Shown in pieces: positions 14,920 to 60,897 of a stretch of DNA of 64,000 nucleotides. The stretch lies in IMG/VR virus record IMGVR_UViG_3300027759_000070, positions 1 through 64,000 of that record. One strand, given 5' to 3'. The notes beneath the pieces are model-generated. The model was not told the origin of the DNA. It ran no database searches and worked only from the letters and a program-made list of their open reading frames with translations. This DNA comes from a virus. A program made the translations under genes and the position numbers. Position 1 is the stretch's first letter. Each line of letters begins with the position of its first letter.

Positions 14920-15555
14920 ATGAAAAAATATTGGGGGTCGGAGGAAGATTACGAAGATGAACAGTCTAAAGAATTACCATCAGCACAGCCAACATCAGAT
15001 TTATTATTACCTTCTGGTTCTATAAAAGTATTGGATAATACAATACATTTTTATGCAGAAATATCAGGTTCTACTTGTAGTGAATTGAATAGATTGCTTA
15101 GGGAACTAGAAATACGAATGCAACATGCCAAGATTACCATGTGTGATCCTGATTTTGATCCCACAATTCATCTAAGAATTCATAGTTATGGTGGTGATGT
15201 GTTAGCAGGATTAGCTACAGTAGACACTATAAGAAGTATGAAAACTAAAGTTTATACTTATGTCGAAGGCGCAGCAGCAAGCGCAGCAACATTAATTAGT
15301 ATTGCTGGTAAAAAAAGATCTATAGGGAAAAATAGTTTTATGTTAATTCATCAACTAAGTGCTGTTTGTGCAGGTACTTTTGAAAGATTAGAAGACGAAC
15401 AAGAGAACAATAGAAGAATGATGAATACTATTAAATCTCTTTATAAAGAGTATACTAAAATTCCTATGAAGGAATTGGATAATATTTTAAAAAGAGACAT
15501 TTGGTTTGATTCTGCAACATGTTTGAAGTACGGTTTAGTTGATGCTATTGTGTAA
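14920..15555 (+). CDS. clpP: ClpP-like serine protease
   Basis: The protein has 211 residues. The ClpP fold is shown by IHLRIHSYGGDVLAGLA (oxyanion glycine pair), the catalytic Ser121 in EGAAASAATLI, His144 in MLIHQLS, and the end FDSATCLKYGLVDAIV. The N-terminus has an acidic extension of about 30 residues. Phage ClpP proteins may replace or modify host proteolysis, or process phage proteins; the partner ATPase is not in this window. The start is fixed by a TAAATA box 5 nt upstream. Confidence 0.9.
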   Translation: MKKYWGSEEDYEDEQSKELPSAQPTSDLLLPSGSIKVLDNTIHFYAEISGSTCSELNRLLRELEIRMQHAKITMCDPDFDPTIHLRIHSYGGDVLAGLATVDTIRSMKTKVYTYVEGAAASAATLISIAGKKRSIGKNSFMLIHQLSAVCAGTFERLEDEQENNRRMMNTIKSLYKEYTKIPMKELDNILKRDIWFDSATCLKYGLVDAIV

Positions 15556-18419: not shown

Positions 18420-19646
18420 TTATGAAGCTGCAACTCCTAATTCGGTATGTTGTACTTTTTTTGCATATGATGTTGGATTCATACCTTTTAACCAGCTAGG
18501 CCAACTTTTAACTAAAGTTAATTTAGTTGGATGACTAAAATTATTATTTGGTCCACCCTTAGAAGCTCCATCTTTTGATGGATCTTCTATTGTTCTTTCC
18601 TTTTGCGAAAATTGTGCAGCATGAGCAAAAGCTGGTTTTGCAGTATTTACCCAATCATCATAATAAGTTTTATTATCAGGATCACCATAAGTAACGTAAT
18701 GATCTCCTCTATATGATTCGTGATTATCACCTAATACTGTTAACCCTCTATCGCCTTTTACTGTATGATGTTCTTCTTGATTCACGACAATAACTTTATT
18801 TTCAACAGCAACTTCGACAGTTACATGATTTCCTATTTCGTAGTGTGATCCGCTATAATGTGATAACTTTATTTTCTCGAAATCATCAGTTTCTATAAAC
18901 TCTAACGATCCAGCTTTAGAGTTAAATGTTGTTTGACCAGAGAAAAAATAAGGTTCACCATCAGGCATTGATTCGGCTCCAGCAGGATAATGTAAACTAG
19001 GATTACTACCTTGTGGATTTGTTACGCTATTCCAATCTTGTTTATCAAAAACATAACCCATATAAACAGGTCTGTCCAGACTCCCATTTTCAAAAAATAC
19101 CCAAACATGTGCTCCGACACGAGGAACCGAAAACATTCCCTTTGCAGCATTGTTTATTGGGGTTGGTGCTATAGATTCATTATAAACATCACACATTCCA
19201 GTTTTATACCCTTCACCAAATCCACCTGGTGTTGCATTTGTTGATAATGCTGCTTTAGGTGAAACGGATTCACCAGATGGTGTGATACTTTGTTCTCCTA
19301 ATGGTTCTCTTAATACTCCCCTGTGACCCTCCCCAACGGTAGCCACACTATTCTTTGCATCATAAACTCCAGCAGAACCACCACCAATTAATGGTGATGC
19401 TTGTTCTGCCCACATTAAAACTTCATTGAATTTTTTTGTATTTTCTTTATTATAAAATGAACATATGTTATCACCACCCAAAAATCTGGCTTGGTGAACA
19501 TCTGGTGGAAGTCCAGATTCTCTAGCTAAATGAGCAGTAAATTCTGGTATAGTAATTTTTACTCTACCTCTTCTTTCTGGGTCATTGTTTTGTGTTACAA
19601 TACCCCTAAAGAATCCATAATGTTTTTCGTCTAAAGGATTTGCCAT
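18420..19646 (-). CDS. gp5-like baseplate hub/spike protein without lysozyme domain
   Basis: The protein has 408 residues. The N-terminal OB fold is shown by FFRGIVTQNNDPERRGRVKITIPEF and, near 175-200, FSVPRVGAHVWVFFENGSLDRPVYMGYVF, as in T4 gp5 and VgrG. No lysozyme domain is present between OB fold and shaft; T4 gp5 has one. Residues 255-345 contain strand repeats (HYEIGNHVTVEVAVENKV) like the gp5 shaft. It acts in the tail tip that pierces the outer membrane. It follows the gene at 20232 by 1 nt and has no own late box, so it is co-transcribed. Confidence 0.85.
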   Translation of the reverse strand: MANPLDEKHYGFFRGIVTQNNDPERRGRVKITIPEFTAHLARESGLPPDVHQARFLGGDNICSFYNKENTKKFNEVLMWAEQASPLIGGGSAGVYDAKNSVATVGEGHRGVLREPLGEQSITPSGESVSPKAALSTNATPGGFGEGYKTGMCDVYNESIAPTPINNAAKGMFSVPRVGAHVWVFFENGSLDRPVYMGYVFDKQDWNSVTNPQGSNPSLHYPAGAESMPDGEPYFFSGQTTFNSKAGSLEFIETDDFEKIKLSHYSGSHYEIGNHVTVEVAVENKVIVVNQEEHHTVKGDRGLTVLGDNHESYRGDHYVTYGDPDNKTYYDDWVNTAKPAFAHAAQFSQKERTIEDPSKDGASKGGPNNNFSHPTKLTLVKSWPSWLKGMNPTSYAKKVQHTELGVAAS

Positions 19647-20705: not shown

Positions 20706-21575
20706 TTATTTACTCTTTTCTTGTCTATTTAATTGTCTTTTTTTTAAATTTTGTACTAATGTAAAAAGTTTTTGTTTAAATTGTTTCCAATATCTATTTG
20801 ATTTTTTGATATTTACAGAAGAATTATCAGGAGAATATGCTATAACTCTAAGAAAATCAACTTTCAATAAAAACATTTCTCGCAAATAACTCATATGTAT
20901 CTCTTGCTCTTCGTCTGGTAAATGCATTAGATACCTTATATAAAACGCATTAAAGAATTTATTTGTTTTTGATTTTGGAAATTTTAAAACGGAGTCTAGT
21001 ATGTATAAAACTTTTGATTTATCTACATCCTTTCTTTCATAAAATCTAGTTATTATATAACCTAATTGTGATGCATTAGCTTCGAATTCTGCTGGTTCTG
21101 TATAATATATAAACCATTCTTCTGGTGTTAATTGTTCTCCTCCTGTTATTTTTGTTGTAACTCCATAATATCCAGCAGATGCTTTTTTGTATTGTTGTAT
21201 GGCATGTATTATTTCATGAGCCAAAATGGATAAAATTGTTTCTAAATTTTCAAACACAGTATCAAATGCTATTACAACATGTTCATAATTATGTTCATCT
21301 TCTTCTATATAAGATCCTCCACTACCAGTTTCTTTAATAAAAACTGGTATTTCTTTATTAAGCTGTTTACCTAAATGTATGTATCCTATATGGAGTGATT
21401 TATGTTTGGTTCTGTTTATCATCTTTTTAACATTTTTCTTTGTTTCGTCTAATGTTAAATTTGATAATTTGCCTCTTCTTGATATATTATTATTAATAAA
21501 TGAAGTAATCAATTTTTTTAATTGATTTTTAATATCATATGTTAATGGGGTGAATCTAGATTCGCTAATTAGCAT
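20706..21575 (-). CDS. HExxH zinc metalloprotease-like protein
   Basis: The protein has 289 residues. H-E-I-I-H in LETILSILAHEIIHAIQQ is a zincin site, and EPAEFEANASQLGY about 50 residues later supplies a Glu that could be the third ligand (gluzincin style). The ATG at 21575 begins MLISESRF, where ISE may be a prohead-protease site. Basic helical ends surround the core. The substrate is unknown; a virion-associated role in entry or cell-wall work is possible. It shares a palindromic promoter with the divergent gene at 21586. Confidence 0.65.
   Translation of the reverse strand: MLISESRFTPLTYDIKNQLKKLITSFINNNISRRGKLSNLTLDETKKNVKKMINRTKHKSLHIGYIHLGKQLNKEIPVFIKETGSGGSYIEEDEHNYEHVVIAFDTVFENLETILSILAHEIIHAIQQYKKASAGYYGVTTKITGGEQLTPEEWFIYYTEPAEFEANASQLGYIITRFYERKDVDKSKVLYILDSVLKFPKSKTNKFFNAFYIRYLMHLPDEEQEIHMSYLREMFLLKVDFLRVIAYSPDNSSVNIKKSNRYWKQFKQKLFTLVQNLKKRQLNRQEKSK
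20707..20712 (-). promoter_or_regulatory. Late promoter box TAAATA
   Basis: The box ends 5 nt before the ATG at 20701. Confidence 0.7.
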
Positions 21576-21588
21576 AAATATATTTATG
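21573..21588. promoter_or_regulatory. 16-bp palindrome holding two start codons and two late promoters
   Basis: CATAAATATATTTATG is a perfect palindrome. CAT at 21573-21575 is the reverse ATG of the metalloprotease and ATG at 21586-21588 starts the basic-protein gene. Each strand has TAAATA 5 nt before its own ATG, and each box overlaps the other gene's start codon. Confidence 0.8.
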
Positions 21589-21864
21589 AACTTCGAACAA
21601 CTAATCGATATGCTTTTGATAATGGAAGAAAAATGCACCAAAGTTACACAAAAAGCTCATTCCTCAAGGAAAGGAAAAAAGTGGATGAAGTGTGCAAAAC
21701 AATCAGACGGAAGCATTAAGCGTATACACTGGGGTCAAGCAGGAGTAAGAGTTACTGGGAAATCTGGTAATACAAAACGTAAAAAATCGTTTAAAGCTAG
21801 ACATGGGTGTTCACACGCAAAAGCTGGTACTCCAAAAGCACAAGCATGTAAAGATTGGGCGTAA
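21586..21864 (+). CDS. Small basic protein, DUF5872-like, with processing leader
   Basis: The protein has 92 residues and begins MNFEQLIDMLLIMEEKCTK with IME at 12-14, a possible cleavage site. The rest is strongly basic with spaced Cys and His (KKWMKCAKQSDGSIKRIHWGQ, SGNTKRKKSFKARHGCSHAK, ACKDWA), as in the short DUF5872-type phage proteins. It would suit a DNA-binding internal head protein. The start lies inside the palindromic promoter. Confidence 0.7.
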   Translation: MNFEQLIDMLLIMEEKCTKVTQKAHSSRKGKKWMKCAKQSDGSIKRIHWGQAGVRVTGKSGNTKRKKSFKARHGCSHAKAGTPKAQACKDWA

Positions 21865-21866
21865 TA

Positions 21867-22214
21867 TTATATTATAGCTCTTGCTCTTTTAATTGATTCT
21901 AATTTTAATTTTGCATCGGCTTCGACATTAGGGTTAAATGATTTCCAATCACCAAAATGACCAATCTTCAAGTGACAACCAGCATCACCTTTTTCTTCGC
22001 ATAATGTAATTAGATTGCTTTGTTCTAGTTCCAATTCTGGATGTAAATGAAATGGTTGTTTGTGGTGTACTTGTAAATTCTTAGTATTACCACAAGCAAC
22101 ACAAGCTGGTTCCAGCTTTAAATGATTCTTTCTAGTAGTTTCCCAATGAGGTGATCTTAATGATAACGGTTTACCTTGTATCTTTTCTTTAATAGCGTTT
22201 AAAAGTCTTGTCAT
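21867..22214 (-). CDS. HNH endonuclease
   Basis: The protein has 115 residues. CVACGNTKNLQVHHKQPFHLHPELELEQSNLITLC is the HNH beta-beta-alpha metal fold with a CxxC zinc site, and GCHLKIGH completes the second zinc half. The ATG at 22214 (MTRLLNAIKEK) is chosen because TAAATA ends 5 nt before it. It sits with a GIY-YIG gene just downstream of the major capsid gene, so it is likely a free-standing homing endonuclease. Confidence 0.85.
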   Translation of the reverse strand: MTRLLNAIKEKIQGKPLSLRSPHWETTRKNHLKLEPACVACGNTKNLQVHHKQPFHLHPELELEQSNLITLCEEKGDAGCHLKIGHFGDWKSFNPNVEADAKLKLESIKRARAII

Positions 22215-22218
22215 ATTA

Positions 22219-23010
22219 TTATTTAACATAATCTATTCTTTCTATTAATTTTAGTATACATCCAGTTTCAAAATTATGTTTAGTCATATTGGTTCTTCTT
22301 TTAATTTTAATTGTTTCTGATTTATTCAATTTTGTAAAAACGCTTCCTTCCATTTGCATTTCATTCACAAAATTAGAATAATTATGGATGAATTCTTTGA
22401 TATCCCCATTTGGGTAGATTACATTATATCTAAGTTTATAATGACCATACTCTTTTAATCTTTTAACAGAAGCTTTCTGCGCTTCTGTTAAACCATAAGT
22501 TTTTATATAATTCTTTAATCTTATAGAAGTTTTTTTTGAATTTTCTTGATGTTTTTTTCTATAGTTTTCGTCGTTTTTATATTTTTGTTTAAGCTTTAAA
22601 GAACATTTAACTCTTCCTTGTATTTGTGAATTGCTATGCCCGTTTTTATATTGTTTTAATTTTCCTATTGATATTCTTTTAGAAACTTCCTTTCTATAAT
22701 CTTGGTTACAATAGTGTAATAGATTTCCCCCAGTACCTCCAATATGGATATTATAGCAATTACTACCGTATTTATATTTTAGTTTTTGTATTAGCTTTTT
22801 TTCTAATTTATCTAATTTTTCTTTTGAATCTATTTTTAGTTTCAACCATCTTCTTGAGAAATTCTCTTTTCCATATTTTTTAACAGCTTTTAAAAAAATA
22901 GTTGGTCCAGATCCGATATAATTATCTGTTTTATATCCAATGTGTTGACCTCCATAAACTTTTCCATTTAGATTATTAATGGTTATATATAATAAAAATT
23001 CTTTATTCAT
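22219..23010 (-). CDS. GIY-YIG homing endonuclease
   Basis: The protein has 263 residues. The N-terminus has the GIY-YIG core in divergent form: FLLYITINNLNGKVYGGQH, then YIGSG, then KKYGKENFSRRWL and CYNIHIGGTGG. The middle is a Lys-rich DNA-binding region (NUMOD3-like repeats). The C-terminal HNFETGCILKLIE resembles the end of the gene at 30079-30906 (HQFKTGDILELKYI), so the two enzymes are related. It lies directly downstream of gp23, a typical homing-gene location in T4-like phages. The late box is at 23017-23022. Confidence 0.85.
   Translation of the reverse strand: MNKEFLLYITINNLNGKVYGGQHIGYKTDNYIGSGPTIFLKAVKKYGKENFSRRWLKLKIDSKEKLDKLEKKLIQKLKYKYGSNCYNIHIGGTGGNLLHYCNQDYRKEVSKRISIGKLKQYKNGHSNSQIQGRVKCSLKLKQKYKNDENYRKKHQENSKKTSIRLKNYIKTYGLTEAQKASVKRLKEYGHYKLRYNVIYPNGDIKEFIHNYSNFVNEMQMEGSVFTKLNKSETIKIKRRTNMTKHNFETGCILKLIERIDYVK
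22220..22225 (-). promoter_or_regulatory. Late promoter box TAAATA
   Basis: The box ends 5 nt before the ATG at 22214. Confidence 0.65.
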
Positions 23011-24686: not shown

Positions 24687-24788
24687 AATTTGTATTTTTC
24701 TTTCTTTTGTTTTTTCGACCTCAAGCACTAACTCAGTGCAGGAACTCAAGTAATATCTACTTCTACCAAATTTTTATAAGTAAATATA
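24687..24788 (-). promoter_or_regulatory. Untranslated leader of gp23 without strong SD
   Basis: On the minus strand this holds a TTATAAAAAT stretch near 24768-24780 (a possible variant late promoter), a small hairpin GCACT/AGTGC and, just before the ATG, an A/G-rich tract (AAAAGAAAGAAAAATAC). No AGGAGG-like site is seen. An unstructured A-rich leader is known to aid translation with weak or no SD. Confidence 0.45.
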
Positions 24789-26019: not shown

Positions 26020-26025
26020 TATTTA
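26020..26025 (-). promoter_or_regulatory. Late promoter box TAAATA
   Basis: The box overlaps the gp21 stop codon and ends 5 nt before the ATG at 26014. Confidence 0.65.
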
Positions 26026-26694
26026 GTTAAATTTGATCTTATTTAAGAAATCCAATATAGATTCTTTTAAATATTGTTCTACTTCTCTTTTAGGAAGACT
26101 ACTAATTTTGTTTTCAAAGTCAGCATATAATTCTTCAAATTGACCAGACTCTGCTAAAACCCATTGTTTAGATTCTAAAATACCATTTACAAATGCTTTA
26201 GGGAATGATGGGTCTGCTACACAGTCTACAGAAATTAAACGCAATTCCTTTACGATGTTTTTACCACCAGCAGCTTCTTCGAGTTGTCCTAGTGCTCTAG
26301 AACTCATACCCACCTTTACACCATCTTGAATTAATGCGCGAACTATGTGTCCACATGGAGTAGTTAATACTTTACTTTTACCATGAAATACATTACCTTC
26401 TTGGTATAAATCTGTAACCAAATGACAAGCTTTATCTAAACTTACTTCAGCAGTACTTTCGTGATTGAGTGTACCCATTGATCTACCAGTATTAATCATT
26501 TCGCTCTTGTATCGATTAACTTCTTTAACCATTTCATCCAATTTATATAAACGATTGTTTCTGTTAAAACTTTCAGCCATCATATATGGACCTTTAATAA
26601 AAAGTGTAGATGGGCTTTTTCTATCTTTTTCTTCAAAGATATACTCAAATTGTTCTTCTGGAGCTGGTTTTTCTACAATTAAACGTAGTGACAT
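26023..26694 (-). CDS. 21: Prohead core protease gp21
   Basis: The protein has 223 residues and is a serine protease of the U9/S78 (herpesvirus-assemblin-like) fold. GTLNHESTAEV supplies catalytic His78, and VKVGMSSRALG supplies the Ser at 131/132; SVDCVADPSFPKAFV closes the family pattern. It cuts head proteins after [L/I]-x-E; its own start MSLRLIVEK and LKE near the C-terminus are such sites. It is the enzyme expected to trim the many leader peptides noted in this window. Confidence 0.93.
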   Translation of the reverse strand: MSLRLIVEKPAPEEQFEYIFEEKDRKSPSTLFIKGPYMMAESFNRNNRLYKLDEMVKEVNRYKSEMINTGRSMGTLNHESTAEVSLDKACHLVTDLYQEGNVFHGKSKVLTTPCGHIVRALIQDGVKVGMSSRALGQLEEAAGGKNIVKELRLISVDCVADPSFPKAFVNGILESKQWVLAESGQFEELYADFENKISSLPKREVEQYLKESILDFLNKIKFN

Positions 26695-28898: not shown

Positions 28899-30068
28899 CT
28901 AACCTACAAAAAATATACAAGGGTCGCTATCGCCCAGGGCAGCAGCATTGGTATATAACTGCTCTTCTAGTTTATTTTTTTCTTCAATTCCTTGGCTCAT
29001 GATTTCTGTAGTAAATACCTGACCCCCAAATAAATTTACTTGACTGAATTTACTTCTAGTATGTCCAACCATTATTTTTGTTAAAGCTAATGCATATTGA
29101 TAAACCCAAATTTCTTTTATTAAATCTCTTATTGGCTTTTCTATATAACAATTAATAACTCCATAAAATCTAACCGAATCGTTTGGTTCTGGATAAATTT
29201 TCATATATTGAGTTCTGTCATTAAATTCATAAGATCTTTTAGTTGCCAATACTTTTTCTCTAGTTTCTAACCAGTTTTTAACACTATACCAACTTATTAA
29301 ATCAAATCCATAATTACCCATTGCATAACTAAAATATGTTTGTTGTGCTAATGTTTGTTCTATAGTAAATAATGTATTAATTCCAGTCGTGGAACCTTCT
29401 TCGAAGTCAGTAACCGCAATTACTTTTCTGTAATCCATCATGTCATAGTCAAACATATTATTGTATATAACAGTTTCTTGACCAGTTTTTTCTCCCATTG
29501 TTGTTAATTCTTGCTTATAAGATGAAACAAAATATGATGATATTGGTATTACATGTAATACTGGATCAGCAGCAAATGCTGTTACCATTTGATTATATAA
29601 AGAATAGTTTAATATAACATTCTTTTCCAAGCCATCTGTATATTTTGCTGATAATTCTGAATTTAATGCAAAAAATGCTTTATTTAAAGATGATAAAGAA
29701 ATATAAAATGTATCAGTATTCTGTAAATATGGCGCAGTATCTACTGATAAAGTTTTATGCGTTACTGCTGATCTAGACATGTCAGATTTTGCTAATGTAT
29801 ACAAATGATCTAATCGTATACCTCTACCTCTTTCATATAAAGCCGAATTTATAATCAAATATTCTTTGGTATAACCAGCATATTTCGAAAACATTTCACA
29901 TGCCATCGAAATTGCTTCGAATATTTGATCCTGATGGATCTCTACAGAAATCAATGGTGCTCCGATAGATCTGACTATACGATCAGCCAGTCTTTGGAAA
30001 CTATCAATTTTACTATTTAAATTAGTGCTTTGAAATGCAGATATCGGTGTTATTAGACATTGGCTCAT
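28899..30068 (-). CDS. Virion structural (neck/connector-type) protein
   Basis: The protein has 389 residues. Near 25-90, ADRIVRSIGAPLISVEIHQDQIFEAISMACEMFSKYAGYTKEYLIINSALYERGRGIRLD is a pattern conserved among T4-like phages of marine bacteria, where it is annotated as a structural protein next to the portal gene; the exact place is not firmly known. No leader peptide is seen. The sequence 5 nt before the ATG is TTAATA, a weak late box. Just past the stop a second frame reads GDGDPLIVD, echoing GDSDPCIFF at the end of this protein. Confidence 0.7.
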   Translation of the reverse strand: MSQCLITPISAFQSTNLNSKIDSFQRLADRIVRSIGAPLISVEIHQDQIFEAISMACEMFSKYAGYTKEYLIINSALYERGRGIRLDHLYTLAKSDMSRSAVTHKTLSVDTAPYLQNTDTFYISLSSLNKAFFALNSELSAKYTDGLEKNVILNYSLYNQMVTAFAADPVLHVIPISSYFVSSYKQELTTMGEKTGQETVIYNNMFDYDMMDYRKVIAVTDFEEGSTTGINTLFTIEQTLAQQTYFSYAMGNYGFDLISWYSVKNWLETREKVLATKRSYEFNDRTQYMKIYPEPNDSVRFYGVINCYIEKPIRDLIKEIWVYQYALALTKIMVGHTRSKFSQVNLFGGQVFTTEIMSQGIEEKNKLEEQLYTNAAALGDSDPCIFFVG

Positions 30069-30073
30069 AAATA
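30068..30073 (+). promoter_or_regulatory. Late promoter box TAAATA
   Basis: The box ends 5 nt before the ATG at 30079 and overlaps the start codon of the divergent gene at 30068. Confidence 0.65.
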
Positions 30074-30078
30074 TATTA

Positions 30079-30906
30079 ATGAAGAAACATTTTTTGATGA
30101 TAAAAACTCATAATATAACTAAATTGAAATATCTTTGTTATCATTTTGGTGATAATGCATCTTGTTATATTTATCCGGGTTCTGGTAAATATTGGAAACT
30201 ACATATTAAAAAACATGGTAAAAATATTTCCACCGAAATATTAGGAGAATATTCATCATTAGAAGATGCTAACATAAATGGATTATTTTATTCAAAATTA
30301 TATAATGTTGTCGAATCAAAAGATTTCGCAAATATTATAGTTGAAGATGCTAGTCATAATTTTAATCATCTTACCAAAGAACAAAGAAAAAAATCATTAG
30401 AAAATCGAGAAAAAAGAAGAAAAGAAAAAGGATTTACTGAATCCGAAATTTTAAACCACAAAAGATTTAAAAGTCTTAAATGGAGACTAACAGAAAATAG
30501 AGAAACCCATTATAAAAATAGAACAAATCGTTTAAGTAATAAACAATTTACTGAATCAGAATTGGCTGGATATAAAAGAATGAGCAAAAAACAAAAAGGT
30601 ATATCATCTGCTATAAGATATAATATTGCAGGTTACACCAATCCAACTAAAGGTAAATCATTTAAAGAGACTATAGGACCAGATTATATACATCCCAAAA
30701 GAAAACAATGGCATTTAATAGTAAATGGAGAATCTAAATTTGTTATAGATAGTACTAAAGAATTACGAAAAATTATATCGGATTCTATAATAAAACAAAT
30801 TAAAAATAATAATTTTTATGAAGTAATTAGATATAATAACACAAAACATCAATTCAAAACTGGAGATATTTTAGAATTGAAATATATCGGATATTCTGGC
30901 GATTAA
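30079..30906 (+). CDS. Homing endonuclease-like protein (GIY-YIG related)
   Basis: The protein has 275 residues. The N-terminal part (YLCYHFGDNASCYIYPGSGKYWKLHIKKHGKNISTEILGEY, then the A..NGLFYSKLYNVV strand-helix) resembles the divergent GIY-YIG core of T4-like homing enzymes. The middle is Lys/Arg-rich with repeated motif-like units (FTESEILNHKRFK and FTESELAGYKRMS). The C-terminal HQFKTGDILELKYI resembles the end of the enzyme at 22219-23010. It is inserted on the opposite strand between two virion genes, the usual placement for a homing element. Confidence 0.7.
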   Translation: MKKHFLMIKTHNITKLKYLCYHFGDNASCYIYPGSGKYWKLHIKKHGKNISTEILGEYSSLEDANINGLFYSKLYNVVESKDFANIIVEDASHNFNHLTKEQRKKSLENREKRRKEKGFTESEILNHKRFKSLKWRLTENRETHYKNRTNRLSNKQFTESELAGYKRMSKKQKGISSAIRYNIAGYTNPTKGKSFKETIGPDYIHPKRKQWHLIVNGESKFVIDSTKELRKIISDSIIKQIKNNNFYEVIRYNNTKHQFKTGDILELKYIGYSGD

Positions 30907-33890: not shown

Positions 33891-36310
33891 TAGGATTTAA
33901 GACGGAATGAATTGATATATATTCCTTCACACAATATATCAAATGTAGATTTTCTACTAAATGATTCCTTTTTAACTGTCTTGGAAGATGCTAAAGAATC
34001 AAGAACTACTTTAAGTTCTGGTGAACCAGATAATTGTCTCCTATATTTGTTACAAAGTTTTCTTGCTATGACTGCTTGTTTATTAGAAAGTTTATGTTGA
34101 TTCGCTAGACTATGACCGATAATACCATCAATTTTATTGAATCCGACATTATTCTTTTCTTGTGCAAAATCTTCATCCATTCCAGCTATTATTTGTAGGA
34201 GTTTTAAGCAAGCTTCTTTAACTTCATCGGTTATTGTAGGATCTTGTGCTTCTTTTCTGATTTGTTCTGGTGTTACATTTTTTGTAACATACTCACCAGC
34301 AATATCAACAGGATGATCTACAAATACTATATCTTCCCCAGCAGTTTCTTTCTTGTCTAAAATCTTGTCATTAACACCAGCTTTATTAATGAAACTTCTA
34401 ATCATTATTTCATCGATTGAATCTTTTGCTGCCAAATAATGTATTTCTACGTTTTTGGTCTGCCCAATACGATGTGCCCTATCTTCTGCTTGAATAATCG
34501 TGGTTGGTCGCCAATCAAATTCACCGAATATAACAGTAGTAGCTGCTGTCAAGGTTAATCCAGTGGCACTTGCTAATATAGAACCAATAAATACTTTGAC
34601 ATCTGGATTAGTTTGAAATTCATCTACTATGTCCGTAACTTCATCCGCCGCTGCTCCACCAATTAACATTACCGATCTTTTTCCAAAATGTTGTTGTAGT
34701 CTCTGAACCACTTCTCTGTGGTGAGCAAATATGATAATTTTTTCTCCAGATTTTAATACTTTTTCAGCATGTTCTATAATATGTGGCAATTTTTGTATAC
34801 CCAAAAGTGATCTTTGCTGAGAAATAGTTTCAAAGAATATTCTTTGTTTTTGTTCTAATTCTTGTGTATACTTATTAAACTGAGAAAGATCATCATTTGA
34901 TTTTGCTAATTCAATATAAGCAACTAGCTCTTCGGTTTCTTTTCTTAATTCATCTCTTATTTGAAGTTCTTCTGCTTTTTCTTTTGCTGAAGATTCAAAC
35001 GTAATAATACTCCTTGTTTTTGGTGGAATATCTTTCAGAACATCCTTTTTCAATCTACGAACCATGATGGTAGATCTCAAAAGATCCTGTAATGCTTCCA
35101 TGTCCGAATCTTTTGGAGTATTGTATTCTAATCCATATCGACCTTGTGTTGCACCACAATACTTTGTGATAAACGTGAAATAGTTATTCCATCTATTTGG
35201 ATCTAGATAATGTAATAATGCAAACAAATCTTGTGGCTTATTGTCGATGGGTGTACCAGTCAAAAACAAAGCTCTTTTGGTTTGAACAGGTTTTTTAACA
35301 TCTTTTGGGTTCATTTTTCTGGCATCGTATGGATGTGTCCCCAAAATTGCCATAGATCTTTTTGCTGTTTTGTTCTTCATGTAATGAGCTTCATCAGCAA
35401 TAACCAAATCAAATTCGCCCATTTCATCAATTTGTTTCTTCAAATCATATATTATATCATAATTGACTATGATAATTCCTCCCATTTTTGCAGGGAATGC
35501 CTTTTTATTATCTACAACGGTTATCTTTCTTTTCGAGATTAACCATTTTTCTAATTCGTTTTTCCAATTGTATTTTAATTTCTGAGGACACAAAATTAAA
35601 ACATTTTGAATATCACTATCATATACATTTATGTAACCGATAGCTTGAATAGTTTTTCCTAAACCCATTTCATCTGCAATGAATACTTTGTCTTTACCCA
35701 TCGCAAATCTAATACCTGATTCTTGGAATGGTAGATATTTTAATCCTTCTGGTGCGGGTATGGGAGAATCAGGAGAAGCACCTTCGGGTTTTGGTTCTTC
35801 ACCAGTTGATCTACTAATTTCTTTAGCATCAACATAAGGTTGTAGTTCCTTTTTTAATTCTACATCAGAATCTGGAACATATTCAATCAATCTTGCTGCT
35901 GTAGCAGCATCACCTGTCCACCAATATTTTCTATCCCTATCAAAAATAAATTTTTTTGATTTGACCATGTCTTTTACCGCTTCATCATATTTAAATGATA
36001 TAATATATCTATCTCCATTTTTACTTAAAATGGGTTTAGAAGCGGCTGATGCTACTGTTGATGTAGGTGTAACATCAGTATTTCCAGATTTATTCAAATA
36101 TTCTTTATAGCAATCTTCGTGCATTACTATTTTTGGACTTGAGTTCCAGAAAATTCTCTGCCCAACATTAATTTTTACTCCGTGTTTGCAATTTTCATAA
36201 CCACATCTACCGGGAAATTTACTCGACATAAACCCCTCTTCTAACATACTTAGAAGAGATTCAGATATAGGTATGAATTTTTTTCTTTTTTTAGACTGTA
36301 AACTAGACAT
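33890..36310 (-). CDS. SNF2-type helicase with HARP domain (SMARCAL1-like)
   Basis: The protein has 806 residues. Residues 36-67 have spaced Cys/His (C36, C41, H43, C67), a possible zinc site. Residues 101-142 (RYIISFKYDEAVKDMVKSKKFIFDRDRKYWWT) fit a HARP domain. The SNF2 motor follows: ADEMGLGKT at 212-220, IADEAHYMKN, LFLTGTP, then FAHHREVVQRLQ, GLTLTAATTVIF and QAEDRAHRIGQ. HARP-SNF2 enzymes anneal ssDNA and remodel forks (family knowledge); a replication or recombination role is likely. A late box 5 nt before the ATG is unusual for a replication enzyme. The N-terminal LSMLEEG might be a processing site. Confidence 0.88.
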   Translation of the reverse strand: MSSLQSKKRKKFIPISESLLSMLEEGFMSSKFPGRCGYENCKHGVKINVGQRIFWNSSPKIVMHEDCYKEYLNKSGNTDVTPTSTVASAASKPILSKNGDRYIISFKYDEAVKDMVKSKKFIFDRDRKYWWTGDAATAARLIEYVPDSDVELKKELQPYVDAKEISRSTGEEPKPEGASPDSPIPAPEGLKYLPFQESGIRFAMGKDKVFIADEMGLGKTIQAIGYINVYDSDIQNVLILCPQKLKYNWKNELEKWLISKRKITVVDNKKAFPAKMGGIIIVNYDIIYDLKKQIDEMGEFDLVIADEAHYMKNKTAKRSMAILGTHPYDARKMNPKDVKKPVQTKRALFLTGTPIDNKPQDLFALLHYLDPNRWNNYFTFITKYCGATQGRYGLEYNTPKDSDMEALQDLLRSTIMVRRLKKDVLKDIPPKTRSIITFESSAKEKAEELQIRDELRKETEELVAYIELAKSNDDLSQFNKYTQELEQKQRIFFETISQQRSLLGIQKLPHIIEHAEKVLKSGEKIIIFAHHREVVQRLQQHFGKRSVMLIGGAAADEVTDIVDEFQTNPDVKVFIGSILASATGLTLTAATTVIFGEFDWRPTTIIQAEDRAHRIGQTKNVEIHYLAAKDSIDEIMIRSFINKAGVNDKILDKKETAGEDIVFVDHPVDIAGEYVTKNVTPEQIRKEAQDPTITDEVKEACLKLLQIIAGMDEDFAQEKNNVGFNKIDGIIGHSLANQHKLSNKQAVIARKLCNKYRRQLSGSPELKVVLDSLASSKTVKKESFSRKSTFDILCEGIYINSFRLKS

Positions 36311-60415: not shown

Positions 60416-60431
60416 AAACATAATGTATAAT
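60404..60431 (+). promoter_or_regulatory. Host-type promoter of gene 55 (TTGATA / TATAAT)
   Basis: TTGATA 60404-60409, 16-nt spacer, TATAAT 60426-60431; the -10 ends 7 nt before the ATG at 60439. Confidence 0.65.
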
Positions 60432-60438
60432 GTTTTTA

Positions 60439-60897
60439 ATGTCAAATGAAGAAAATGTAAAACCAAAAAAGAACAAAGATGCATATTATGTAGATCCCGT
60501 TGTTTTTAAAAATGAAATCAAAGAGTACTATAACACTGCTGTTTGTAATGACTTCTTGGGAGAATGTTTGAATAAAATTGCCGAAGGACTTGGATATAAT
60601 CCCAAATTTATCAATTATTCATACAAAGAAGAAATGATTGGGGATGCATTAATTAAAATGTTCAGCGCATTAAAAAGAAAAAAATTTGACGTTACAACCG
60701 ACACATCACCTTTTGGATATTTCACTACTATAGCATTTCATGCATTCATTAATCGAATTAAAAAGGAAAAGAAACACCATGATACAATTAATGAATACAA
60801 ACAAAGAAAATACGAAGAAGAGATGTCTTCTTCTGAAGGTCATATATACGTCAAGCCGATTTTAGATTCTACTGAAGAAGATCCATTTTGGGATTGA
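60439..60897 (+). CDS. 55: Late-transcription sigma factor gp55
   Basis: The protein has 152 residues from the ATG at 60439. AYYVDPVVFKNEIKEYY, then FINYSYKEEMIGDALIKMFSALKRKKFDV, SPFGYFTTIAFHAFINRIKKEKK match T4-like gp55, which directs RNA polymerase to TATAAATA-type promoters with gp33 and the clamp. This is the factor expected to read the TAAATA boxes listed here. Confidence 0.93.
   Translation: MSNEENVKPKKNKDAYYVDPVVFKNEIKEYYNTAVCNDFLGECLNKIAEGLGYNPKFINYSYKEEMIGDALIKMFSALKRKKFDVTTDTSPFGYFTTIAFHAFINRIKKEKKHHDTINEYKQRKYEEEMSSSEGHIYVKPILDSTEEDPFWD

What the first reader, a model, noticed from the sequence alone, without database searches (positions are those of the whole stretch)
21573..21588. 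Perfect 16-bp palindrome that is two promoters and two start codons at once
CATAAATATATTTATG contains the start codons of two divergent genes and a TAAATA box for each at the 5-nt spacing. The genes are separated by only 10 bp, and each box overlaps the other gene's ATG. This is about the tightest divergent promoter pair possible and works only if both mRNAs are leaderless. It would also force mutually exclusive firing.
Basis: partly seen in the sequence, partly recalled or inferred. Interest (0 to 1): 0.8.

Follow-up and report, generated by a model that had tools for sequence, protein, structure and literature searches.

The report
Back-to-back leaderless phage late promoters
In an uncultivated relative of phage T4, two neighbouring genes read in opposite directions appear to share a single 16-bp DNA word that is both promoters and both start codons, and this reflects a genome-wide rule, predicted from sequence only, that the phage's late messages begin directly at the start codon with no leader.

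Summary
CATAAATATATTTATG lies at 21573-21588, in a T4-like viral contig that also encodes gp23 and gp55. It holds two divergent ATGs 10 bp apart, each 5 nt downstream of TAAATA. All 16 bases are forced by two TAAATA-N5-ATG units that share one base pair with each other's start codon, so no extra operator is needed. Ten bp is the smallest gap that keeps the boxes outside the genes.

The main finding is larger. TAAATA exactly 5 nt before ATG is a rule for many genes in this contig: 34 of 194 boxes at 5 nt, 9 at 6, at most 4 at any other spacing. The same peak occurs in 78 gp23-related loci (227 at 5 nt) and in cultured Pelagibacter phage HTVC008M (12). It is absent from T4 (26-28 nt), S-PM2, P-HM2 and RM378. 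In T4 geometry (box -13 to -6) the predicted transcription start is the A of ATG. Boxed genes have no Shine-Dalgarno (0 of 41), and boxes favour strand switches.

The palindrome recurs with the same gene pair at 28% protein identity, and with unrelated partners. Leaderless divergent late promoters are well supported by sequence, but no 5' ends have been mapped. Mutual exclusion is plausible but untested; it would be alternation, not a switch.

The parts
21573..21588 (.). Perfect 16-bp palindrome CATAAATATATTTATG: two start codons and two late-promoter boxes
21575..21580 (+). TAAATA box of the + gene (predicted -11 to -6)
21581..21586 (-). TAAATA box of the - gene (predicted -11 to -6)
21586..21864 (+). 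92-aa protein, phrog_7595-like, function unknown; 215 relatives in viral contigs; predicted start of transcription at the A of ATG
20706..21575 (-). 289-aa protein with a HEIIH motif (possible zinc metallopeptidase; SprT-like only at sub-threshold score in the L007 homolog); predicted start of transcription at the A of ATG
60430..60897 (+). gp55-like late sigma factor (phrog_234, E=7.9e-26), the expected reader of the TAAATA boxes
30066..30081 (.). Second site with the same geometry, CATAAATATATTAATG: divergent ATGs 10 bp apart; + box perfect, - (gp13-like) box degenerate (TTAATA)

Best explanation
The palindrome is two T4-type (gp55-dependent) late promoters placed back to back at the minimum possible distance. 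Each box (CATAAATA, -13 to -6) directs RNA polymerase to start at the A of its own gene's ATG, so both mRNAs are leaderless. The perfect symmetry is a by-product: two TAAATA-N5-ATG units with 10 bp between ATGs leave no free base. Because both promoters melt the same roughly 12-bp segment, one polymerase at a time can open it, in one direction or the other; the two genes would be expressed by alternation over many genome copies late in infection. The site is one instance of a lineage-wide rule that many late genes of these phages start 5-6 nt after TAAATA. Shown: sequence, spacing rule, conservation, gp55, lack of SD. Inferred: transcription start, leaderless translation, alternation.
For: (1) Of 194 TAAATA in the contig, 34 lie exactly 5 nt and 9 lie 6 nt before an ATG opening an ORF of 60 aa or more; no other spacing exceeds 4. 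Among all hexamers with at least 5 A/T, TAAATA at 5 nt is the clear outlier (31; next best, 8, is the overlapping AAATAA; ORFs of 80 aa or more). (2) 78 gp23-related loci: 227 at 5 nt, 45 at 6, fewer elsewhere. (3) Orthologue footprints at 5 nt: gp21 43/58, gp13 27/41, the + gene 35/53, ORF133 11/11; gp20 15/21 at 5-6 nt. (4) Cultured HTVC008M: 12 at 5 nt, all coinciding with deposited CDS starts. (5) T4 late box is at -13 to -6 with no -35 (PMC2988020), which puts +1 on the A of ATG here; no -35 is conserved in the aligned boxes. (6) gp55 is encoded. (7) SD: 0/41 box genes; T4 28/51 genes. (8) Boxes favour genes after a strand switch: 16/24 against 25/82, Fisher p=0.002. (9) The palindrome is kept in L007/L009 with the - protein of L007 at 28% identity, and joins the phrog_7595 family to different partners in L006 and L194/L136.
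Against: No RNA 5' ends exist for this phage. TAAATA is AT-rich and 25 of 82 operon-internal genes carry it, so a translational role is not excluded. SD-like motifs are at background in non-box genes too (6/64), so their absence may reflect the host and not leaderlessness. gp33 was not found (a weak single-sequence search) and gp45 was not looked for. gp23 itself lacks the arrangement (64/68 orthologues). The both-sides palindrome in viral contigs (10 of 119 hits, including duplicates) is not clearly above a control palindrome (1 of 52) by count alone.
Confidence: 0.8

Rival explanations
1. TAAATA-N5-ATG is a translation-initiation signal in the mRNA (an A/U-rich ribosome or RegA-type site) and not a promoter; the real promoters lie upstream and both genes have leaders.
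For: Boxes also precede operon-internal genes (25/82 own, 208/752 in relatives). The phage shows almost no SD, so some other start signal might be needed.
Against: The hexamer is the core of the known T4/cyanophage late promoter; gp55 is encoded; boxes are enriched after strand switches; sampled replication genes (DNA polymerase, gp46, UvsX) lack them. A leader here would have to run from inside the opposite gene.
Confidence: 0.1
2. The real starts are farther upstream (GTG at codon -12 of the + ORF, GTG/TTG at codons -21/-22 of the - ORF), so the genes overlap divergently and the palindrome is internal coding sequence.
For: Both frames stay open upstream in the window.
Against: These starts are not at conserved positions in L006/L007/L009, and L006's - frame has none; homology starts at the ATGs.
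Confidence: 0.04
3. The palindrome is an operator for a dimeric regulator that controls both genes.
For: Perfect dyad symmetry; single perfect copy in the contig.
Against: All 16 bases are already dictated by two start codons and two boxes; the same word joins unrelated gene pairs in other phages; flanks are not symmetric.
Confidence: 0.04
4. Chance arrangement in AT-rich DNA with no function.
For: The word is AT-rich and most hits in viral contigs (63 of 119) have no ORF of 60 aa or more on either side.
Against: Spacing statistics and orthologue footprints; conservation of the junction at 28% protein identity.
Confidence: 0.02

Closest known systems
T4 late promoters (TATAAATA, gp55/gp33/gp45; PMC2988020) and cyanophage NATAAATA late promoters (PMC2984593)
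   Same: Core TAAATA, no -35, AT-rich spacer, gp55 encoded, precedes virion genes
   Different: T4 boxes lie mostly 26-28 nt before the ATG, leaving a leader with SD; here 5-6 nt, leaving none. Positions -13/-12 are loose (A/G, A/C).
Leaderless middle/late mRNAs of Thermus phage phiYS40 (PMC3594737)
   Same: Genome-wide leaderless late expression in a phage
   Different: Thermus host; here a T4-like phage with a gp55 promoter box
Pelagibacter phage HTVC008M (cultured, T4-like)
   Same: TAAATA 5 nt before 12 ORF starts, including a divergent pair at 18916(-)/18943(+)
   Different: That pair is 26 bp apart with a free spacer; fewer boxes in the genome. No 5'-end data found.
Bacterial leaderless transcriptomes (e.g. 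M. tuberculosis, PMC3898074, seen only as a search hit)
   Same: Leaderless starts are common
   Different: Not compared here; host sigma factors, not a phage late box

Membership tests
T4-type late promoter | TATAAATA-type box | tested here: met
   CATAAATA on both strands; 34 aligned boxes NNTAAATA; fits NATAAATA of S-PM2 (PMC2984593)
T4-type late promoter | No conserved -35, AT-rich segment after the box | tested here: met
   Column counts
T4-type late promoter | Phage encodes gp55 | tested here: met
   60430-60894, phrog_234 E=7.9e-26
T4-type late promoter | gp33 and gp45 co-activators | tested here: inconclusive
   HTVC008M gp33 candidate gave no significant tblastn hit; gp45 not searched; the contig is a fragment
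T4-type late promoter | Serves late (virion) genes | tested here: met
   gp13, gp20, gp21 orthologues carry boxes; sampled replication genes mostly do not; a helicase at 36310 does
T4-type late promoter | Transcript starts about 6 nt after the box | not testable with these tools
   No RNA data
Leaderless gene | No Shine-Dalgarno before ATG | tested here: met
   0/41 box genes; but non-box genes are also near background
Leaderless gene | 5' end at the A of AUG | not testable with these tools
   Predicted from box geometry only
Dimeric-repressor operator | Symmetry beyond what promoters and start codons require | tested here: not met
   Enumeration; flanks asymmetric

The most novel reading that the evidence does not exclude
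A whole environmental lineage of T4-like phages, with one cultured member showing the same geometry (HTVC008M), expresses many of its late virion genes from gp55 promoters fused to start codons, i.e. a leaderless late programme. This allows one melted 12-bp segment to serve as two opposing promoters that fire alternately.
Probability: 0.65. Interest if true: 0.75.

Novelty: new variant of a known kind. Interest (0 to 1): 0.62.

Why it matters
T4 late transcription is a textbook system in which the message carries a leader with a ribosome-binding site. If this lineage has fused the late box to the start codon, then promoter choice and translation start are set by one motif, late messages bypass SD recognition, and divergent late genes can be packed to 10 bp. 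It also gives a simple annotation rule (TAAATA-N5-ATG marks a late gene start). It may bear on why standard late-promoter searches failed in pelagimyophages (PMC7029224). And it is directly testable in a cultured phage.

Tried and rejected
Nucleotide and protein searches of the phage collection with the two genes: no match. The search for related loci with the - protein: none; its homologue was found only by reading L007 next to the + gene. Family searches with wrong coordinates failed and were repeated. Sigma-70 scan of the region: no excess over shuffles. Control palindrome CATTTATATATAAATG: 1 of 52 with ORFs on both sides against 10 of 119, not a clear excess by count. Gap distribution of divergent box pairs is biased, because loci were fetched by the palindrome. 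Host inference from ribonucleotide reductase was inconclusive (Opitutales, Lokiarchaeota and Flavobacteriaceae MAGs). Phage-encoded bS21 as a translation modifier: present in HTVC008M, no hit in this contig. Literature: no report of leaderless gp55 promoters found in the open-access library; this is not a full search.

Full report
WHAT IS THERE. The 16-bp word CATAAATATATTTATG is at 21573-21588 as stated and occurs once in the contig. The contig is an 86,971-bp IMG/VR record. It encodes gp23, gp20, gp21 and gp13-like proteins, DNA polymerase and gp46, UvsX and gp55, so it is a T4-like phage. Its gp23 is only about 33% identical to the best cultured matches, cyanophages. The + gene (21586-21864, 92 aa) belongs to a widespread family (phrog_7595; 215 relatives). 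The - gene (21575-20706, 289 aa) has a HEIIH motif and may be a metallopeptidase; this is only suggestive.

WHY THE SEQUENCE IS A PALINDROME. Two units of TAAATA-N5-ATG facing away from each other with 10 bp between the ATGs fix every one of the 16 bases. Enumeration of all gaps shows that 10 is the smallest gap compatible with both boxes lying outside the opposite gene (gaps 0-2 are formally possible but put each box inside the other gene). So the symmetry needs no operator to explain it. Each box shares one base pair with the other gene's ATG, and the boxes abut without overlapping.

THE RULE BEHIND IT. In the contig, 34 of 194 TAAATA hexamers lie exactly 5 nt before an ATG that opens an ORF of 60 aa or more, and 9 lie at 6 nt; no other distance from 0 to 40 exceeds 4. 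With ORFs of 80 aa or more, among all hexamers with at least five A/T, TAAATA scores 31 at distance 5; the next (8) is the overlapping AAATAA, and the rest are 3 or fewer. In 78 loci (907 kb) around related gp23 genes the count at 5 nt is 227, then 45 at 6 nt, falling away. Orthologue footprints show it is not a local accident: gp21 43 of 58 at 5 nt, gp13 27 of 41, the + gene 35 of 53, ORF133 11 of 11, gp20 15 of 21 at 5-6 nt. Controls: T4's boxes peak at 26-28 nt; P-HM2, S-PM2 and RM378 have no 5-nt peak; the cultured Pelagibacter phage HTVC008M does, 9 in the first 50 kb and 12 in the whole genome, all at deposited CDS starts.

PROMOTER OR TRANSLATION SIGNAL. T4 late promoters are an 8-bp box at -13 to -6 without a -35 element (PMC2988020); cyanophages use NATAAATA (PMC2984593). 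On this geometry the start nucleotide is the A of the ATG. The aligned boxes have no conserved -35 and an AT-rich spacer, the phage encodes gp55, and boxes are commoner on genes that follow a strand switch (16/24) than on internal ones (25/82; p=0.002; in relatives 42/108 against 208/752, p=0.02). Box genes have no SD (0/41) while T4 genes do (28/51). But SD is at background in this phage's other genes as well, so the host may not use SD at all; that point is weaker than it looks. A translational role of the box remains the main rival.

CONSERVATION OF THIS SITE. L007 and L009 keep the same palindrome and the same gene pair; the - protein of L007 is 28% identical over its length, so the junction is held while the protein has diverged widely. 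L006 keeps the palindrome in front of the same + gene but with an unrelated - gene, and L194/L136 join a phrog_7595 gene to yet another partner. Unrelated gene pairs use the same word in L087, L192/L096, L161 and L185. By count alone this recurrence is not clearly above a control palindrome (10/119 with duplicates against 1/52), so it should be taken as illustration. A second near-copy in the window (30066-30081) has the same 10-bp geometry upstream of a gp13-like gene, whose own box is degenerate there although most orthologues keep it.

HOW IT MOST LIKELY WORKS. Late in infection gp55-polymerase recognises CATAAATA on either strand, melts the same segment, and starts at one ATG or the other. 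Two polymerases cannot sit there together (inference from size), so the two genes share the site by alternation. With many genome copies both are expressed; nothing indicates a switch.

NOVELTY. Leaderless phage late mRNAs are known in Thermus phage phiYS40 (PMC3594737), and T4 late promoters are textbook; the fusion of the two as a lineage-wide rule was not found in the library searched. I call it a new variant of a known kind.

Noticed in passing
window 24687-24785 (-), upstream of gp23: gp23 is an exception: 64/68 orthologues lack the 5-nt box and close relatives share a structured leader with two hairpins, the second CCTG-stem-loop-stem-TTGAGGTCGA. Several stem pairs change as pairs (e.g. 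C-G/T-A/A-T; T-A/G-C/A-T/C-G) in 22 aligned leaders; no Rfam match. Possible new capsid-mRNA leader element.
   Followed up: partly
window 30079-30906 (+): 275-aa gene sits 10 bp from the gp13-like ATG; relatives in L296/L299 (32% identity) lie downstream of gp13 instead, and L299's copy has its own TAAATA-N5-ATG, as a mobile (possibly homing-endonuclease) gene carrying its own promoter would.
   Followed up: partly
HTVC008M (NC_020484; L335) 18916(-)/18943(+): Divergent pair (DNA end protector / head closure), both with TAAATA 5 nt before ATG, 26 bp apart: a cultured test case for divergent leaderless late promoters.
   Followed up: partly
window 22219-23010 (-) and 21867-22229 (-): GIY-YIG-type homing endonuclease (phrog_314) and HNH endonuclease between gp23 and the palindrome locus.
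   Followed up: no
window 14920-15555 (+): ClpP/head-maturation-protease-like protein (phrog_94) in addition to the gp21 protease at 26023-26694, both with boxes.
   Followed up: no
whole contig: SD-like motifs are at background for all genes, suggesting a host that does not rely on SD; host not identified.
   Followed up: partly
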